From: Palleronia pelagia | GTDB taxonomy: Bacteria; Pseudomonadota; Alphaproteobacteria; Rhodobacterales; Rhodobacteraceae | Assembly: GCF_900110115.1 (NCBI RefSeq) | Contig: NZ_FOCM01000006.1 | Location: 1 to 64,000 of the forward strand | Length of the DNA: 64,000 nucleotides | Direction: 5' to 3' | Shown here: in pieces, positions 34,175-39,658 of the stretch | Layout of the letters: the number at the start of each line of letters is the position of its first letter | How positions within the stretch are numbered: the stretch's first letter is position 1 | The notes under the pieces: model-generated | Told to the model about the DNA's origin: nothing | The model's input: the letters and a program-made list of their open reading frames with translations, nothing else | Database searches by the model: none | Made by a program: the position numbers and the translations under genes

Positions 34175-34331
34175 CGTCCCTTATCTGCCTCGACGCGCAA
34201 CTGGGCGCAGCGTATTGCCGCTGCGCCCTTTTTCTTGGGCGGGGGGCGGACCGTGGGGCCGTCGATCGCGGCCCGTCTCCGGGGGAGTGATCGGGTTCTA
34301 GAAAGCAGGGGCCTATTCGACCCCGTGACTC

Positions 34332-34718
34332 CTAGATCTGCTCCGCGACGCTGGCCTTGTCGATGACGGACCAGACGCGCCGGATCCTGTCGTCGTGATA
34401 TTCGTAGAAGACATTCTCGGTGAACCTGATCCTCGCCCCGTTCACCGGCAGCCCGAACAGCTGGCCGACAGGCGTGCAGTCGAAGGCCAGCCGGCTGGCG
34501 ATCACCGGCGGGTCGCAGGAGAGCATGGCAATGTTGAAGGACAGGTCGGGGATCGCCCGAAAGTCTTCGACCAGCATCCCCCGATAGCCGTCGAGCCCGA
34601 TCGCGGCCCCGTTGTATTCGACGCCGTCCGCCACGTGCTGTTGCAGCGCGTCCCAGTCCTGCGCGTTCAGGCACGCGATGTAGCCCCGGTAGAGTTCCCT
34701 GATCCTGTCGCGCGTCAC
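34332..34718 (-). CDS. SnoaL-like (NTF2-fold) ester-cyclase family protein
   Basis: A 128-residue NTF2-like alpha+beta barrel protein of the SnoaL/ester-cyclase group. The segment IRELYRGYIACLNAQDWDAL opens the fold; later AIPDLSFNIAMLSCDPPVIA and the ending FYEYHDDRIRRVWSVIDKAS match the family pattern where His/Asp residues line a cavity. SnoaL itself is a polyketide cyclase, but most relatives have unknown substrates. It stands alone between minus-strand genes with no polyketide genes nearby, so a catalytic role is unproven. Confidence 0.75.
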   Translation of the reverse strand: MTRDRIRELYRGYIACLNAQDWDALQQHVADGVEYNGAAIGLDGYRGMLVEDFRAIPDLSFNIAMLSCDPPVIASRLAFDCTPVGQLFGLPVNGARIRFTENVFYEYHDDRIRRVWSVIDKASVAEQI

Positions 34719-34819
34719 GTCGCCACCCCCCTTCGTCGGTCTTTTCGATTTCTAGGGACGGGCCTGCTCCCGGACCAGCCTCTTCAGGCGCTTCGCCCCG
34801 CTGGGAGGAGTGGTCGCAG

Positions 34820-34850
34820 AAAGGCTCCCGAAATTGCTTCGGGAGCCTTT
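34820..34850 (-). terminator. Hairpin downstream of the acidic membrane protein gene
   Basis: AAAGGCTCCCGAA (34820-34832), loop ATTGC, TTCGGGAGCCTTT (34838-34850): a perfect 13-bp stem with A/T ends, so it could work on either strand. It lies 41 bases beyond the stop of the minus-strand 196-residue gene. Confidence 0.75.
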
Positions 34851-34891
34851 GTATTGGCGCCACAGCGCCCCATGCTTTCAGATCTCGGGGC

Positions 34892-35482
34892 TTATTCGGC
34901 GATCGTCTCGTCGTCGCGGCCTTCGGGGCCCGACGGGGTGGGGACGAAGCCGGTGCCGCCGCTATCGGTGTCGCGCACCACCGACTGGTCCTCTTCGGGC
35001 GTCAGCTCGGTTTCGGTGTCGCGGCCGTCGGGAAAGCTTTCGTCCGATGCGTCTTCGACGCGGTCGGCGCCACTGTCGCTCGACTCGTCGACGATGAACT
35101 CGTCATCCGCGATGGTCGCCGACGACTCGGTCTGGGTGTCGCTCTCGTCATCCGGTGCGGGTTGGGGGGTCTCGCTGTCCTCGATGGGCTCCAGCGGATC
35201 CTCGGCCTCGGCCGGCGGCACGGTTTCCTGACCGGGCGCGGCCGGATCGACCTCGTCCAGCTCGTCGGTGATGCCCTCGGTCTCCATGTCGCGCTCGCCT
35301 TCGGGGTTGGTGCCCGCGCCGGCGGGACGGGACGAGATGTCGTCCTCGGCGATGATCGTCGGCTCGTCCGGCGGCGTCTCGTCGGACATGGCGAAGACGG
35401 CGACGATGGCGATCAGGGCCGCTGCCCCCACGAGAAAGATGGGGCCGAGGATGTTGCCGGCCCCTTTCGTTGATTTGGCCAT
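34892..35482 (-). CDS. Acidic single-span membrane protein
   Basis: A 196-residue protein with one membrane helix near the N-terminus (about residues 10-31, ILGPIFLVGAAALIAIVAVF). A long strongly acidic, Ser/Thr/Pro-rich, low-complexity tail follows (about 32-196; many Asp and Glu) with no cysteine. The tail is probably disordered. The Lys-rich N-terminus before the helix suggests N-in topology with the tail outside. GGAGG precedes the ATG. It starts 131 bases from the divergent pyrF. Function unknown; the composition alone gives no family. Confidence 0.75.
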   Translation of the reverse strand: MAKSTKGAGNILGPIFLVGAAALIAIVAVFAMSDETPPDEPTIIAEDDISSRPAGAGTNPEGERDMETEGITDELDEVDPAAPGQETVPPAEAEDPLEPIEDSETPQPAPDDESDTQTESSATIADDEFIVDESSDSGADRVEDASDESFPDGRDTETELTPEEDQSVVRDTDSGGTGFVPTPSGPEGRDDETIAE

Positions 35483-35613
35483 GGTTTAGCCTCCTGTCTT
35501 TGGCGGCAAAACGGGTCCCCCCATGCGGCGGTTCCACTCTTGCGCCCCTTGCGTCAATCCGCCACTTGGGGTGCGCTCCCTGCGAAAAGCGCGATGCGAA
35601 AAGGATTCCGCCC

Positions 35614-36306
35614 ATGACCGATGACCGCCTGATCGTTGCCCTGGACGTGCCCGACGCCATCGCCGGACTGGAGCTTGCGGGCCGCATCGGTCCCGCCGTC
35701 GGCTTCTACAAGATCGGGCTGGGCATGCTGACCGGCGGCGGGCTTGCCCTGGCGCGCGAGCTGAAGGACGAGCACGGCAAGCGGATCTTCCTCGACATGA
35801 AGCTGTTCGATATCGGTGCCACGGTCGAGGCGGCGGTGCGGGGATTGGTGCAGTTCGATCTCGATTTCCTGACCGTGCATGGCGACCCCCACGTGGTCCG
35901 CGCGGCGATGGAGGGCGCGGCCGGCTCGCGCACGCGCATCCTCGCGGTGACGATCCTGACCTCGCTGGACCGGTCCGACCTGGACGCGGGCCTGATGCGG
36001 GCGGGCGACATGGCGCAGATGGTCGAGGACCGCGCCGCCGCCGCGTTCGAGGCCGGCGCCGACGGCGTCATCGCCTCGCCGCAGGAGGCCGCCGCGATCC
36101 GCGCGTTGCCGCAATCCGAAGGCCGCCTGATCGTCACGCCGGGGGTCCGCCCCGAAGGATCGGCGCCCGGCGACCAGAAACGCATCGCCACCCCCGCTGG
36201 CGCCATCGGGGCGGGCGCCGACCATATCGTGGTGGGCCGTCCGGTCTGGCAGGCCCACGATCCGGCCGCCGCCGCGCGCGCCATCCTGTCGGACCTGCCG
36301 TCCTGA
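35614..36306 (+). CDS. pyrF: Orotidine 5'-phosphate decarboxylase
   Basis: Last step of UMP synthesis: decarboxylates OMP. The 230-residue protein shows the D-x-K-x-x-D catalytic array as FLDMKLFDIG (about residues 58-67), the opening LIVALDVPD, and the phosphate-binding end TPGVRPEG...GADHIVVGRP. ATG at 35614 gives the normal family length; AAGGA lies about 10 bases upstream. pyrB and the inactive dihydroorotase homologue lie about 5-7 kb away on the other strand, so the pyrimidine genes are dispersed. Confidence 0.96.
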   Translation: MTDDRLIVALDVPDAIAGLELAGRIGPAVGFYKIGLGMLTGGGLALARELKDEHGKRIFLDMKLFDIGATVEAAVRGLVQFDLDFLTVHGDPHVVRAAMEGAAGSRTRILAVTILTSLDRSDLDAGLMRAGDMAQMVEDRAAAAFEAGADGVIASPQEAAAIRALPQSEGRLIVTPGVRPEGSAPGDQKRIATPAGAIGAGADHIVVGRPVWQAHDPAAAARAILSDLPS

Positions 36307-36355
36307 GCCCGCGGCTGGACGCGGGCGGAGCGATTGCCTAAAGCTGGCACCGATC

Positions 36356-36432
36356 GGTCCCGTGGCTCAACTGGATAGAGCAGCCCCCTCCTAAGGGGCA
36401 GGTTGCAGGTTCGAATCCTGCCGGGATCGCCA
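36356..36432 (+). tRNA. tRNA-Arg(CCT)
   Basis: A 77-base cloverleaf. The acceptor stem GGTCCCG/CGGGATC includes one G-U pair. The D-arm is GCTC/GAGC, the anticodon stem GCCCC/GGGGC with loop CTCCTAA (anticodon CCT), the T-loop TTCGAAT, and CCA is encoded. It reads AGG codons. Its 3' end is the integration site of the 2.4-kb element that follows. Confidence 0.96.
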
Positions 36433-36433
36433 G
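36409..36433 (+). other. attL-like site at the tRNA-Arg 3' end
   Basis: A 25-base segment from the T-loop through the CCA plus G (GTTCGAATCCTG then CCGGGATCGCCAG). It recurs at 38809-38833 with a single T/G difference. The tRNA is left whole on this side, the usual outcome of tyrosine-recombinase integration. Confidence 0.85.
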
Positions 36434-36624
36434 CATCAACCCGTCGTCAGCAAAATCAATCACTTATCAGTCAATTCTGTAACTCAGGCCGACGAGTTTA
36501 CAAGGAACATGTCGCGTCGAGAGGCTCGGCGCTGAGCCAGAAGAAATCAGACATGTTCACCGCTCTGTTTCCGCGCGGTGAATCACGCCCTTCCGCTCAG
36601 ATCAATGGGGCCTGAGCTTAATTT

Positions 36625-38376
36625 TCATCTTAGGCCATTCCAGGATCGGATGTGCTCACAAAGGGTTTTTACCTGCTGTTGGAGGTCAAGATGGCCAACC
36701 ATAGCACTCTCATCGATGTACTCTTCAGCCCGGTGGGCGAGATCAACCTTCGTAGCGGCAACTTGCGAAACTTCATAAATTGACGGGATGTCCTGATACT
36801 CGTCTTGAATGTTGAGTTTTTTCCCTGTGAGCTCCTCCCAGACCGCTGCGGGAACATAATTTTCGATCTCTTTTCCAGCAGTAACCCAGGTGTGTCCCCC
36901 TTGGAGCTCAACCTGGTGGATGATCTCCCTTTTTGTTGCGTTAAGCCTTTTCTGTGGTCGGCGCGGTTTGCCACCTTTAGTTTTCCAAGCGTTTGGGCGG
37001 CGATCGCTATCGATCACAACGGAAACGTTCCTGTTAATTGCGAGCATTGAGACTTTTTCTGGCAGACTCTCTGGGGGTAACGAGTCAAAGTGACTAAGCA
37101 GCTTGCCTCCGTAAAAAAGGATAGAGTAATGAATGCCTTCTCGAAGTGAGCCGCGGGATAATACTTCGATCCATCTATTCACGTAGACGCGGTCCGAGGG
37201 CCCCTCGACCCAAATAACACCATTCGCTTGCAATATATCTGAGCCTCGGACATCGAGGTCGGAGAGAATGCTGGATTTCCCGCTGTATTCCATCGCATTT
37301 TGGCAAATCGTCCGCCCGTCATCCCGCTTCACGTGAAGAATGGTTGAGTCATTGCGTTTCGCTGCGAGATCAATGCAAAGGGCCGAGTGGGTGGTTATAA
37401 CCAAGCTAAAGTTCCGTTCAGCTCTTTGGTGCGCGAGAAAGTCGATAAGCCTTCGTAGCAATGCTGGATGAAGGTTATTTTCCGGCTCCTCTAGGCAGAA
37501 AATTAGTCTTGATGCAAAGCCGGTCTTTGCGATCTCTGGGTACAGACGAAGAAAGGCGAGTACAATAAAAACTGTTCTAAGAGAGCTGCCGGATTGCGAA
37601 AGTCTTATATCACCTTTGTCGTCCTCACGGAGATATATCTCCCACTCACTGGAGGTCTCGTTCTCCTGACATATAATTTCTGAAAAATGGCTATCGCCCA
37701 GATAAATTTCATTTATGTCTTGGAGTAGCGCTGCTTCGACTAGTTGCCGTGGCAGGTCGTCGCTATTGATAAAGGCCCGTACAAGATTTGTTAAGCCTGT
37801 TCCGGTCGGTCCTAAATCCCTACTAGTGCTCCTTTTCTCCGGTTGAACATCACGTTCAGCCCGAATTCTGGTGCTCCATAGGCCAGTAAACGGAGATTCT
37901 ACGGCGTCCTGCATGTTGCTAATGGCTTCCTGCACAAGACCCTTTTCTTCCCCCTCGTTTTCAAGAAGCCTGACCTTATTATTATTGTCGATGCTCCATG
38001 TGAATTCATGTGGAATAATATGCTTTTCGGCATACATCCAGTAATTTGGCGCCGGAATGCGTGAGCTTGATGTGGATGAAGGGAATCGGCGCTTAATTTT
38101 CTCTTCATTTGGCCTCTGCTTGAACTCTACGCGAGGATCGCTGCCGTTTCGAGCTAGAGGGCCGTCGAAAATTTTTCCCGATGTGGTTACGCATTCTTGA
38201 ATTACGTCAAGAATTGTGGATTTGCCAGAGTTATTTTTCCCAATTATGAAGGTGATCGGTGCGAACCAAAATAATCCGCTGCCGCAGTCGTCGAAGCACT
38301 TGACGCCCTTGATATTTATTTTCGCTCCATAAAGTGGGTGGTTCTTCGCGGGCGCGCTATCATCGGTATTCTTCAT
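36625..38376 (-). CDS. OLD-family ATP-dependent nuclease (AAA ABC-type ATPase + TOPRIM)
   Basis: A 583-residue class 1-type OLD (overcoming lysogenization defect) protein, close to the 586 residues of phage P2 Old. The ABC/SMC-like ATPase has Walker A GKNNSGKST (46-54), signature-like LSQSGSS (259-265), Walker B LIFCLEEPE (291-299) and H-loop TTHSA (328-332). The TOPRIM nuclease has E391 in VEGPSD, D456 and D458 in VVIDSD, and E503/E505 in KEIENY, so both active sites look intact. Family members cut nucleic acid and several act in phage exclusion. No UvrD-like helicase gene (the Gabija partner) is adjacent. Codon use and A+T content differ sharply from neighbours, which supports transfer. Confidence 0.9.
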   Translation of the reverse strand: MKNTDDSAPAKNHPLYGAKINIKGVKCFDDCGSGLFWFAPITFIIGKNNSGKSTILDVIQECVTTSGKIFDGPLARNGSDPRVEFKQRPNEEKIKRRFPSSTSSSRIPAPNYWMYAEKHIIPHEFTWSIDNNNKVRLLENEGEEKGLVQEAISNMQDAVESPFTGLWSTRIRAERDVQPEKRSTSRDLGPTGTGLTNLVRAFINSDDLPRQLVEAALLQDINEIYLGDSHFSEIICQENETSSEWEIYLREDDKGDIRLSQSGSSLRTVFIVLAFLRLYPEIAKTGFASRLIFCLEEPENNLHPALLRRLIDFLAHQRAERNFSLVITTHSALCIDLAAKRNDSTILHVKRDDGRTICQNAMEYSGKSSILSDLDVRGSDILQANGVIWVEGPSDRVYVNRWIEVLSRGSLREGIHYSILFYGGKLLSHFDSLPPESLPEKVSMLAINRNVSVVIDSDRRPNAWKTKGGKPRRPQKRLNATKREIIHQVELQGGHTWVTAGKEIENYVPAAVWEELTGKKLNIQDEYQDIPSIYEVSQVAATKVDLAHRAEEYIDESAMVGHLDLQQQVKTLCEHIRSWNGLR

Positions 38377-38808
38377 TTGGGCGGCCTTTTGTGGAGAATT
38401 ATTATGTCATCTAAGTTTTTGGATTGATCTACAAGTTTTCGCAAAAGCGATTTGACGGGGTTGAGATTCAATGCGGTCTACTCGATTGCTTTCGTGTCTT
38501 TTGCCAGTCCCAACTTTCGTCAAATCAAGCCGGACCGCAAGTCGAAGACCGTAAAACTCGGAGTAGTCCTTGCATGAAGGGCGTTACACATGCAGCCGAG
38601 ACTAGATGGCACTGCTCTGCTGCCCGCTGCGGTTGTTAGCACAGCCTGAGCCCAGTGCGGCCCCAGCGTGTCTAGGCTGGCAGCGAAAGCGATTCTACAC
38701 GTCTTGATAGTAGCTACACCTGTTTGCAACTCGGGCTGTAACCTATTGATTTTTATGAGGCGGTGGAAGCAACATTTAATCGGTCAGGCCATTGATTTGC
38801 TCATGAGA
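38377..38808. other. Right part of the island without recognised genes
   Basis: About 430 bases between the OLD start and the right repeat. It must contain the OLD promoter. Short frames on both strands (e.g. plus 38424-38639, minus 38520-38729) have no family, signal or good ribosome site. No hairpin RNA or second gene is evident. Confidence 0.4.
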
Positions 38809-38833
38809 GTTCGAAGCCTGCCGGGATCGCCAG
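38809..38833 (+). other. attR-like repeat of the tRNA-Arg 3' end
   Basis: GTTCGAAGCCTG followed by CCGGGATCGCCAG repeats 36409-36433 with one mismatch (G for T at the eighth base). High-G+C chromosomal sequence resumes directly after it. Confidence 0.85.
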
Positions 38834-38920: not shown

Positions 38921-39658
38921 ATGTGCAATGCCTGCCTCAGCCGCCGCAGTTTCCTGAGCCTTGCCGCGGCGGGCACCGTTTCGGCCTGCGATGGACCGCC
39001 CGACCTTGTTCCGGACGCGCAGGTCGAAGCGATGGGGCTGCAGGCGTGGGAACAGATGCGCGCCGAGACGCCCGCCAGCCGCAACGCCGAGTACCAGGGC
39101 GCGCTGGACGCGGTGTCGCGCCGCCTGCTGGAAGAGCAGAACCAGCGCCCGCAGGACTGGGAGGTGGTCGTCTTCGCCTCGCCTCAGATCAACGCCTTCG
39201 CGCTGCCCGGCCGCAAGATCGGCATCTACGAGGGCATGTTCGGTGTGGTGCAGAACACCGACCAGTTGGCCGCCATCGTCGGCCACGAGATCGGGCACCT
39301 GGCCGCCGAGCACGCGCAGAAGCGCATGTCGGCGCAGGTGGCCAAGTCGCTGGGCGTGCGTTTTCTGGCCTGGGTTCTGAACGTCGGCGGCGTGGAGTAC
39401 GGCAACGAGATCGCTGCCGCGCTGGGTCTGGGGGTCGAGGTGGGGCTGTTGCTGCCCTATTCCCGCGACCACGAGTTGGAGGCCGACCGCTTCGGCCTGC
39501 AGGCCATGGCGGGGGCGGGGTTCCGCCCCGAAGAGGCGGTGACCCTGTGGCAGCGGATGCAGGCCGCGCAGGGCAATCGCGGGCCGGAATTCCTGGCGAC
39601 GCACCCCACGCCCGACAGCCGGATCGAGCAGATCGAGGAAATCCTTCAGACGATCTGA
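38921..39658 (+). CDS. M48-family metalloprotease, lipoprotein-like
   Basis: A 245-residue zinc metallopeptidase of the M48 (BepA/LoiP/HtpX-like) family. It has a twin-arginine signal SRRSFLSLAAAG followed by the lipobox-like VSAC (Cys23), suggesting a Tat-exported lipoprotein. The zinc motif is HEIGH (about residues 127-131) with a third ligand in HELEADR (about 184-190). The late THPTPDSRIEQIE is typical. Relatives degrade misfolded outer-membrane proteins in the periplasm. It is the first gene after the island's right boundary, so its upstream region may have been altered by the insertion. Confidence 0.9.
   Translation: MCNACLSRRSFLSLAAAGTVSACDGPPDLVPDAQVEAMGLQAWEQMRAETPASRNAEYQGALDAVSRRLLEEQNQRPQDWEVVVFASPQINAFALPGRKIGIYEGMFGVVQNTDQLAAIVGHEIGHLAAEHAQKRMSAQVAKSLGVRFLAWVLNVGGVEYGNEIAAALGLGVEVGLLLPYSRDHELEADRFGLQAMAGAGFRPEEAVTLWQRMQAAQGNRGPEFLATHPTPDSRIEQIEEILQTI

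What the first reader, a model, noticed from the sequence alone, without database searches (positions are those of the whole stretch)
36409..38833. 2.4-kb tRNA-Arg island whose only recognised cargo is an OLD nuclease, with no recombinase
Near-identical 25-base copies of the tRNA-Arg 3' end (one mismatch) bound an interval of exactly 2,400 bases with clearly lower G+C. The only identifiable gene is a complete OLD-family ATPase/TOPRIM protein. OLD proteins are known to act against phage (P2 Old, and GajA with a helicase partner). A single-gene element at a tRNA with no integrase suggests mobilisation in trans, a satellite-like state, or a decayed larger island. It may be a minimal mobile defence cassette.
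Basis: partly seen in the sequence, partly recalled or inferred. Interest (0 to 1): 0.8.

Follow-up and report, generated by a model that had tools for sequence, protein, structure and literature searches.

The report
Decayed tRNA island keeping one OLD gene
A small foreign DNA segment sits at the end of a bacterial tRNA gene and holds one complete gene of a type known from virus defence; it looks like the leftover of a larger mobile island that lost part of itself, which is a known kind of thing with an interesting survivor.

Summary
Two 25-base copies of the tRNA-Arg(CCT) 3' end (24/25 identical) lie 2,400 bases apart. The segment between is 48.7% G+C against 67-71% outside, and a sister genome, 96% identical around the site, has one copy and no insert. 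The only recognised complete gene is a 583-aa stand-alone (class 1) OLD protein with ATPase and TOPRIM motifs intact; no integrase was found in it.

So the island lost DNA, which favours a decayed, CIME-like island over a cassette born without an integrase. The lost integrase itself is inferred.

Relatives of the OLD gene lie between tRNA or tmRNA end repeats in 6 of 80 other loci (not all fully testable): three with a complete integrase, one with a truncated one, two with none recognised, among them a 3.0-kb Mesorhizobium interval. OLD may be the part that selection keeps; movement in trans is possible but not shown.

The parts
36356..36432 (+). tRNA-Arg (anticodon CCT), the integration target; complete with encoded CCA
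   Evidence: ARAGORN; Rfam tRNA 65.4 bits
36409..36433 (+). tRNA-side copy of the 25-base repeat (attL-like), from the T-loop region to one base past the tRNA 3' end
36434..36529 (.). 96 bases between the repeat and the IS stub, unassigned
   Evidence: no Pfam match in the three of six frames scanned; no convincing plasmid match
36530..36621 (-). truncated end of an IS5-family insertion sequence: one terminus, the 5' leader and about the first 8 codons of the transposase; roughly 730 bases of the IS are missing
   Evidence: 89% identity over 92 bases to annotated IS5-family elements
36625..38376 (-). OLD-family protein, 583 aa: ABC-type ATPase plus TOPRIM nuclease, motifs intact
38377..38808 (.). 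432 bases upstream of the OLD gene without recognised content; presumably its promoter region (inferred; the promoter scan gave nothing there)
   Evidence: no Pfam family above cut-off in six frames; no relative in 394 family genomes beyond the 25-base tRNA end; no match in plasmids
38809..38833 (+). far copy of the 25-base repeat (attR-like), one mismatch, in the T-loop
35602..36306 (+). flanking host gene, orotidine 5'-phosphate decarboxylase (pyrF; start approximate)
   Evidence: Pfam OMPdecase 3.4e-50
38921..39658 (+). flanking host gene, M48 peptidase
   Evidence: Pfam Peptidase_M48 6.1e-38

Best explanation
An island inserted into the tRNA-Arg(CCT) gene by tyrosine-recombinase-type recombination and later lost DNA between the tRNA-side copy and the OLD gene, in an event that cut an IS5 element down to a 92-base stub. 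What is left is a CIME-like remnant: two attachment-site copies around one intact stand-alone (class 1) OLD gene. Shown: attachment copies, empty site in a sister, foreign composition, intact OLD, truncated IS, no integrase found. Inferred: that a tyrosine recombinase made the insertion and that its gene was among the lost DNA; that the OLD gene is kept because it protects against phage, its ATPase sensing an infection cue and its TOPRIM domain cutting nucleic acid; and that the remnant could still be moved by a matching integrase in trans or by accretion with a new element.
For: Repeats and empty site. Composition contrast. IS5 stub with one true IS end 3 bases from the OLD stop codon and the other side cut inside the transposase gene. 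Related OLD genes occur in tRNA/tmRNA islands with a full integrase (L163, L166, L187), in all three on the tRNA side, and in one island with only the arm-binding part of an integrase (L230). OLD motifs GKNNSGKS, EEPENNLHP, TTHS, VEGPSD, DSD and GKEIENY retained; the model has GajA and T. scotoductus OLD among its best fold matches.
Against: No integrase remnant was found in the non-coding parts. The gap lies on the tRNA side, but integrases do not always sit there: the truncated one in L230 and those of the tRNA-Arg(CCT) elements in G001, G014 and G285 lie beside the far copy. The IS could have inserted into, and been trimmed inside, an element that never had an integrase. The Mesorhizobium example shows no IS match in the part searched. 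Only one relative, G013, keeps both flanks, so insertion here and excision there cannot be told apart.
Confidence: 0.63

Rival explanations
1. A minimal cassette: attachment site plus one OLD gene, never carrying an integrase, excised and inserted by a recombinase supplied in trans by a phage, satellite or other island.
For: A second OLD island without recognised integrase, 3,007 bases at tRNA-Leu(CAG) in Mesorhizobium, with a 42-base repeat; in 8 of 29 relatives' loci compared, the alignments of its left flank and of the tRNA end within about 125 bases of each other (two aligned closely). S. mitis has OLD with three other recognised genes and no integrase among the ORFs of 90 aa or more between tRNA-Leu end repeats. 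tRNA-Arg(CCT) is used by integrase-bearing elements in this family.
Against: The IS stub shows DNA loss in this island. The integrases found at this tRNA go, in the two cases measured, with a 48-49-base displaced copy reaching the anticodon arm (G001; viral contig L296), whereas the window's copy starts in the T-loop, so they are probably not the matching enzyme; this genome has no relative of the G001 integrase. The ends share nothing beyond shuffles with three such elements.
Confidence: 0.2
2. Decay product that is now simply an immobile chromosomal gene, with OLD doing a housekeeping or selfish task rather than defence.
For: No integrase found, IS-scarred, attachment copies already differ at one base. 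An archaeal OLD-class ATPase has a cell-cycle role (PMC12796447, start of abstract in the listing).
Against: The closest relative lacks it, and only the own genome among 394 of the family holds this protein (next best 46% over part); best matches in the defence-model library are GajA, NsnB, AriA and Old.
Confidence: 0.12
3. Chance resemblance or assembly artefact: the far repeat is unrelated to any insertion.
For: None found.
Against: No match expected in shuffles, exact empty site, composition step at both repeats.
Confidence: 0.02

Closest known systems
CIME (cis-mobilizable element), as defined in PMC5704250 (passages read)
   Same: Keeps attL and attR, has no integration or transfer genes; 3' end of a tRNA as target.
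   Different: CIMEs are defined as decayed ICEs or IMEs; the parent here is unknown, and the cargo is a single OLD gene.
Class 1 OLD genes (P2 Old, T. scotoductus OLD, E. coli YbjD); PMC10568477 and PMC13261556 (passages read)
   Same: Stand-alone ATPase plus TOPRIM gene with no helicase or retron partner.
   Different: Here the gene lies between tRNA attachment-site copies; in the passages read, P2 Old is a prophage gene and YbjD lies between chromosomal genes. Whole-protein sequence similarity to solved OLD proteins is marginal.
Gabija GajA (class 2 OLD)
   Same: Best defence-library match (3.8e-20) and first Foldseek matches.
   Different: No GajB helicase gene in the island or beside it.
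tmRNA islands with intY and putative defence genes, one of them moved by a jumbo phage (PMC12595487, passages read)
   Same: Small attachment repeats at a tRNA-type gene, defence-type cargo, no transfer genes.
   Different: Those encode a tyrosine integrase, shown there to be needed for excision of I55; none was found here.

Membership tests
CIME | attL and attR retained around the element | tested here: met
   25-base copies and empty site
CIME | no integration or transfer genes left | tested here: met
   only the OLD ORF is recognised; no integrase match in the island
CIME | derived from an ICE or IME by decay | tested here: inconclusive
   IS5 stub shows loss of DNA, but the parent element was not found
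CIME | can be mobilised in cis after accretion | not testable with these tools
   needs cultures
OLD family | N-terminal ABC-type ATPase with Walker A, Walker B and signature motifs | tested here: met
   Pfam AAA_21 and AAA_15 over cut-off; core motif residues invariant (motif names recalled)
OLD family | C-terminal TOPRIM with acidic metal-binding residues | tested here: met
   E391, D456, D458 and E503 invariant in the 9- and 14-member alignments; that these are the TOPRIM residues is recalled, and Pfam matched only the ATPase part
Class 1 OLD | single gene, no UvrD-like helicase or retron partner | tested here: met
   neighbours are the tRNA and pyrF on one side, an M48 peptidase on the other; no other recognised gene in the island
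Gabija | GajB helicase next to GajA | tested here: not met
   no such ORF in the island or beside it
Retron-Eco8 effector | NCBIfam equivalog cut-off of 250 bits | tested here: not met
   40.7 bits; no ORF of reverse-transcriptase size besides OLD in the island
IME or PICI-type satellite | own integrase | tested here: not met

The most novel reading that the evidence does not exclude
A branch of class 1 OLD genes travels recurrently as one- or two-gene tRNA islands without an integrase, moved in trans by recombinases of unrelated elements; that would explain why class 1 OLD genes turn up alone, outside defence islands. The window and Mesorhizobium islands would be two members, and the IS stub a late scar.
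Probability: 0.17. Interest if true: 0.65.

Novelty: new member of a known kind. Interest (0 to 1): 0.37.

Why it matters
Class 1 OLD genes are reported as rare and isolated (0.45% of bacterial genomes according to PMC13261556, passages read, which cites Patel and Seed 2025; that paper itself was not held). How they spread was not addressed in what I read. This locus suggests one route by which a lone OLD gene arises: an island at a tRNA is pared down until the OLD gene and the attachment copies are what remains. A similar interval in Mesorhizobium hints that the gene is worth keeping, and both loci give boundaries for testing mobility and phage protection.

Tried and rejected
Close relatives of the OLD protein: single-sequence scans of genome contigs and viral contigs found none. 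A sample of the family, about one genome per genus, gave 30 of 394 genomes with a match, own genome included, the best other 46% over residues 290-510. Plasmids: 207 records, all under 60% identity, one covering 80% or more of the query; phages: 1 record. Alignment-based scans gave full-length relatives, 43-45% at best in genome contigs, and 30 loci in predicted viral contigs, the best 31-35%; I ran tRNA detection on five of these 30 and found one tRNA (L297), and did not study them further.

The parent element by its ends: 38377-38833 matched 6 of 394 genomes, the five others by the 25-base tRNA end alone; the far-copy variant with G gave 0 viral contigs; the whole interior gave no phage record. 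The tRNA version of the repeat gave one viral contig, L296, with an integrase 64% like that of G001, but its copy reaches the anticodon arm, so it was set aside as helper. Sub-terminal sequences of the window island and of three integrase-bearing islands at the same tRNA are no more alike than shuffled ones. A 14-base inverted match near the two ends is weak: 5 of 200 shuffles reach it. The promoter and terminator scan gave no more than shuffles.

Side of the nearest tRNA: OLD lies on its 3' side in 10 of 11 loci with a tRNA in the better-scoring group (L160-L191 and L199, 33 loci) against 5 of 10 in the other 47. The groups were drawn by rank, not by a tree, after seeing data; only suggestive. 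In the same call L226 just exceeded its shuffles (14.5 against 13.5) with a 17-base A+T-rich match outside the tRNA; dropped. Other direct repeats (L165, L169, L176, L220 and a second one in L160) did not overlap a called tRNA and were dropped. Not every lone OLD gene comes from a tRNA island: in Pelagibius (L161) it is a single-gene islet with no tRNA called, and two relatives have 574 and 377 bases in its place. The base rate of integrase-less tRNA-bounded intervals with other cargo was not measured. The six literature searches showed no OLD-only tRNA island in the listings and passages I saw.

Full report
What was checked. The tRNA-Arg(CCT) gene lies at 36356-36432. Its last 24 bases plus one recur at 38809-38833 with one mismatch, exactly 2,400 bases on; shuffles of the window give no such pair, and a 23-mer from it finds only these two places in the whole genome. 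The interval is 48.7% G+C, the flanks 67.3% and 71.1%.

Empty site. All 14 genomes of the genus searched, own included, matched a query running from pyrF through the tRNA. The nearest, G013, aligns at 96-97% with window 34190-36433 and again from 38809, has one copy of the repeat, and runs on into the same M48 peptidase gene. Of six relatives checked with the tRNA behind pyrF, only G013 keeps the right flank; two of the other five had under 4 kb of downstream sequence. Insertion here and loss there are therefore not separated, but both mean precise traffic at the repeat. The family is Rhodobacteraceae by inference: a family member (G427) has a contig of the same length as a Pseudorhodobacter record.

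The cargo. The one recognised gene, 36625-38376 on the minus strand, encodes 583 aa matching AAA_21 and AAA_15 over their cut-offs. In PADLOC the first matches are GajA, NsnB, AriA and, further down, Old models; in NCBIfam nothing reaches a cut-off. Core residues of the Walker A and B motifs, the H-loop and the acidic TOPRIM positions are invariant in alignments of 9 and 14 proteins (the motif names are recalled). A model from 14 sequences (mean pLDDT 79.2) has GajA and T. scotoductus OLD among its first Foldseek matches, E 7.5e-14 and 3.2e-11, with low TM-scores of about 0.3 over the full length; residues 9-378 match PtuA-, SMC- and Rad50-type ATPases at Z of about 16-19, and the C-terminal part is barely tested by that list. 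Without helicase or reverse transcriptase beside it, it is class 1 by the definition in PMC10568477 (passages).

The scar. A blastn search of the island against plasmids matched 62 records; in the ten rows shown the match lies each time within the same stretch of about 100 bases, and 7 of the 10 carry an IS5-family transposase annotation there. Window 36530-36621 is 89% identical to one end of the IS5-family elements in Celeribacter and Sulfitobacter plasmids. Those two elements share about 825 bases, so roughly 730 are missing here. The IS end lies 3 bases from the OLD stop codon; the OLD C-terminus aligns fully with its relatives, so the gene is not truncated. The other end is cut about 8 codons into the transposase, and 96 unassigned bases separate it from the attachment copy. 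DNA was thus lost on the tRNA side.

Was an integrase lost there? In the three related OLD islands with a complete integrase it lies on the tRNA or tmRNA side (L163, L166, and L187 by my reading of its repeat). But in L230 the truncated integrase lies beside the far copy, as do the integrases of the G001, G014 and G285 elements at tRNA-Arg(CCT).

Relatives. An alignment-based scan of genome contigs gave 266 relatives, 80 kept. I looked for flanking exact repeats in 31 of the 80 and for tRNA-end repeats in those with a called tRNA or tmRNA, 21 of the 80. OLD lies between tRNA or tmRNA end repeats in 6: L163 (tmRNA, 10.0 kb), L166 (tRNA-Phe, 8.4 kb), L180 (tRNA-Leu, 7.4 kb), L230 (tRNA-Thr, 4.8 kb), L160 (tRNA-Leu, 3.0 kb) and L187 (62-base repeat, 15.4 kb; no tRNA called, tRNA-Leu is my reading). 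Complete integrases: L163, L166, L187. Truncated: L230, a 265-aa ORF with only the arm-binding domain. None recognised: L180 and L160. Flanks of at most 10 kb and short contigs could hide further cases.

The Mesorhizobium case. In L160 the OLD gene (43% identical) and a 246-aa ORF without Pfam or plasmid relatives lie in 3,007 bases bounded by a 42-base repeat with a few mismatches that covers the tRNA-Leu(CAG) 3' end. In 8 of 29 relatives' loci compared, the alignments of the left flank and of the tRNA end within about 125 bases of each other, without the island. In two of them, G445 and G462, a closer look shows a short stretch there that L160 lacks, so the join is not exact. In the relatives closest on the tRNA side the left flank was not found next to it.

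Who could move it. At tRNA-Arg(CCT), 32 loci of relatives were read downstream, 12 (L041-L052) and 20 picked from the list (L240-L259); three of the 32 had only 0.3-3.1 kb. A second copy was found in 3: G001, G014, G285, at 10.9, 14.1 and 11.6 kb. G236 has two matches 23.7 kb apart, beyond the stretch read. The integrases of G014 and G285 are 54% identical to that of G001, and a viral contig has one 64% identical. For G001 and the viral contig the displaced copy is 48-49 bases and begins in the anticodon arm; the window's begins in the T-loop. G000 has no relative of this integrase. So the recombinase that made the window island probably belongs to another type and was not found.

Verdict. A genuine, precisely bounded tRNA island, most likely a CIME-like remnant after loss of DNA next to an IS, whose surviving cargo is an intact class 1 OLD gene. 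Defence function, mobility and the former presence of an integrase are inferred. A review of helper-dependent elements (PMC11389934, passages) describes gene loss as an origin of mobilizable plasmids, MITEs and integrase-less cassette arrays, so the kind is known; the recurrence with OLD is the point worth following.

Noticed in passing
L046 7047-17995 (genome G001, same genus): 10.9-kb element at the same tRNA-Arg(CCT) with integrase, MerR-type regulator, Nu1, GpA terminase, portal and protease/capsid genes: a capsid-forming satellite (cfPICI)-like gene set; the comparison is recalled, not tested. Related integrases at the same tRNA in G014 and G285.
   Followed up: partly
L296 75-1250 (IMG/VR contig): Viral contig whose integrase (64% like that of G001) abuts a 49-base copy identical to the window's tRNA-Arg end: apparently an integrase group specific for tRNA-Arg(CCT).
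   Followed up: partly
L180 9727-12906 (Streptococcus mitis): Inside a 7.4-kb tRNA-Leu interval, OLD and an endonuclease/exonuclease/phosphatase gene are flanked by an exact 84-base direct repeat 3,096 bases apart.
   Followed up: no
L161 9980-11821 (Pelagibius): OLD as a 1.84-kb single-gene, low-G+C islet without a called tRNA; two relatives carry 574 or 377 bases there instead.
   Followed up: partly
L230 8816-13718 (Bradyrhizobium): 4.8-kb tRNA-Thr island with OLD, a DUF3800 gene and a truncated integrase.
   Followed up: partly
L297 10001-11908 (IMG/VR contig): A full-length relative of the OLD protein about 200 bases from the 3' end of a tRNA-Cys in a predicted viral contig.
   Followed up: no
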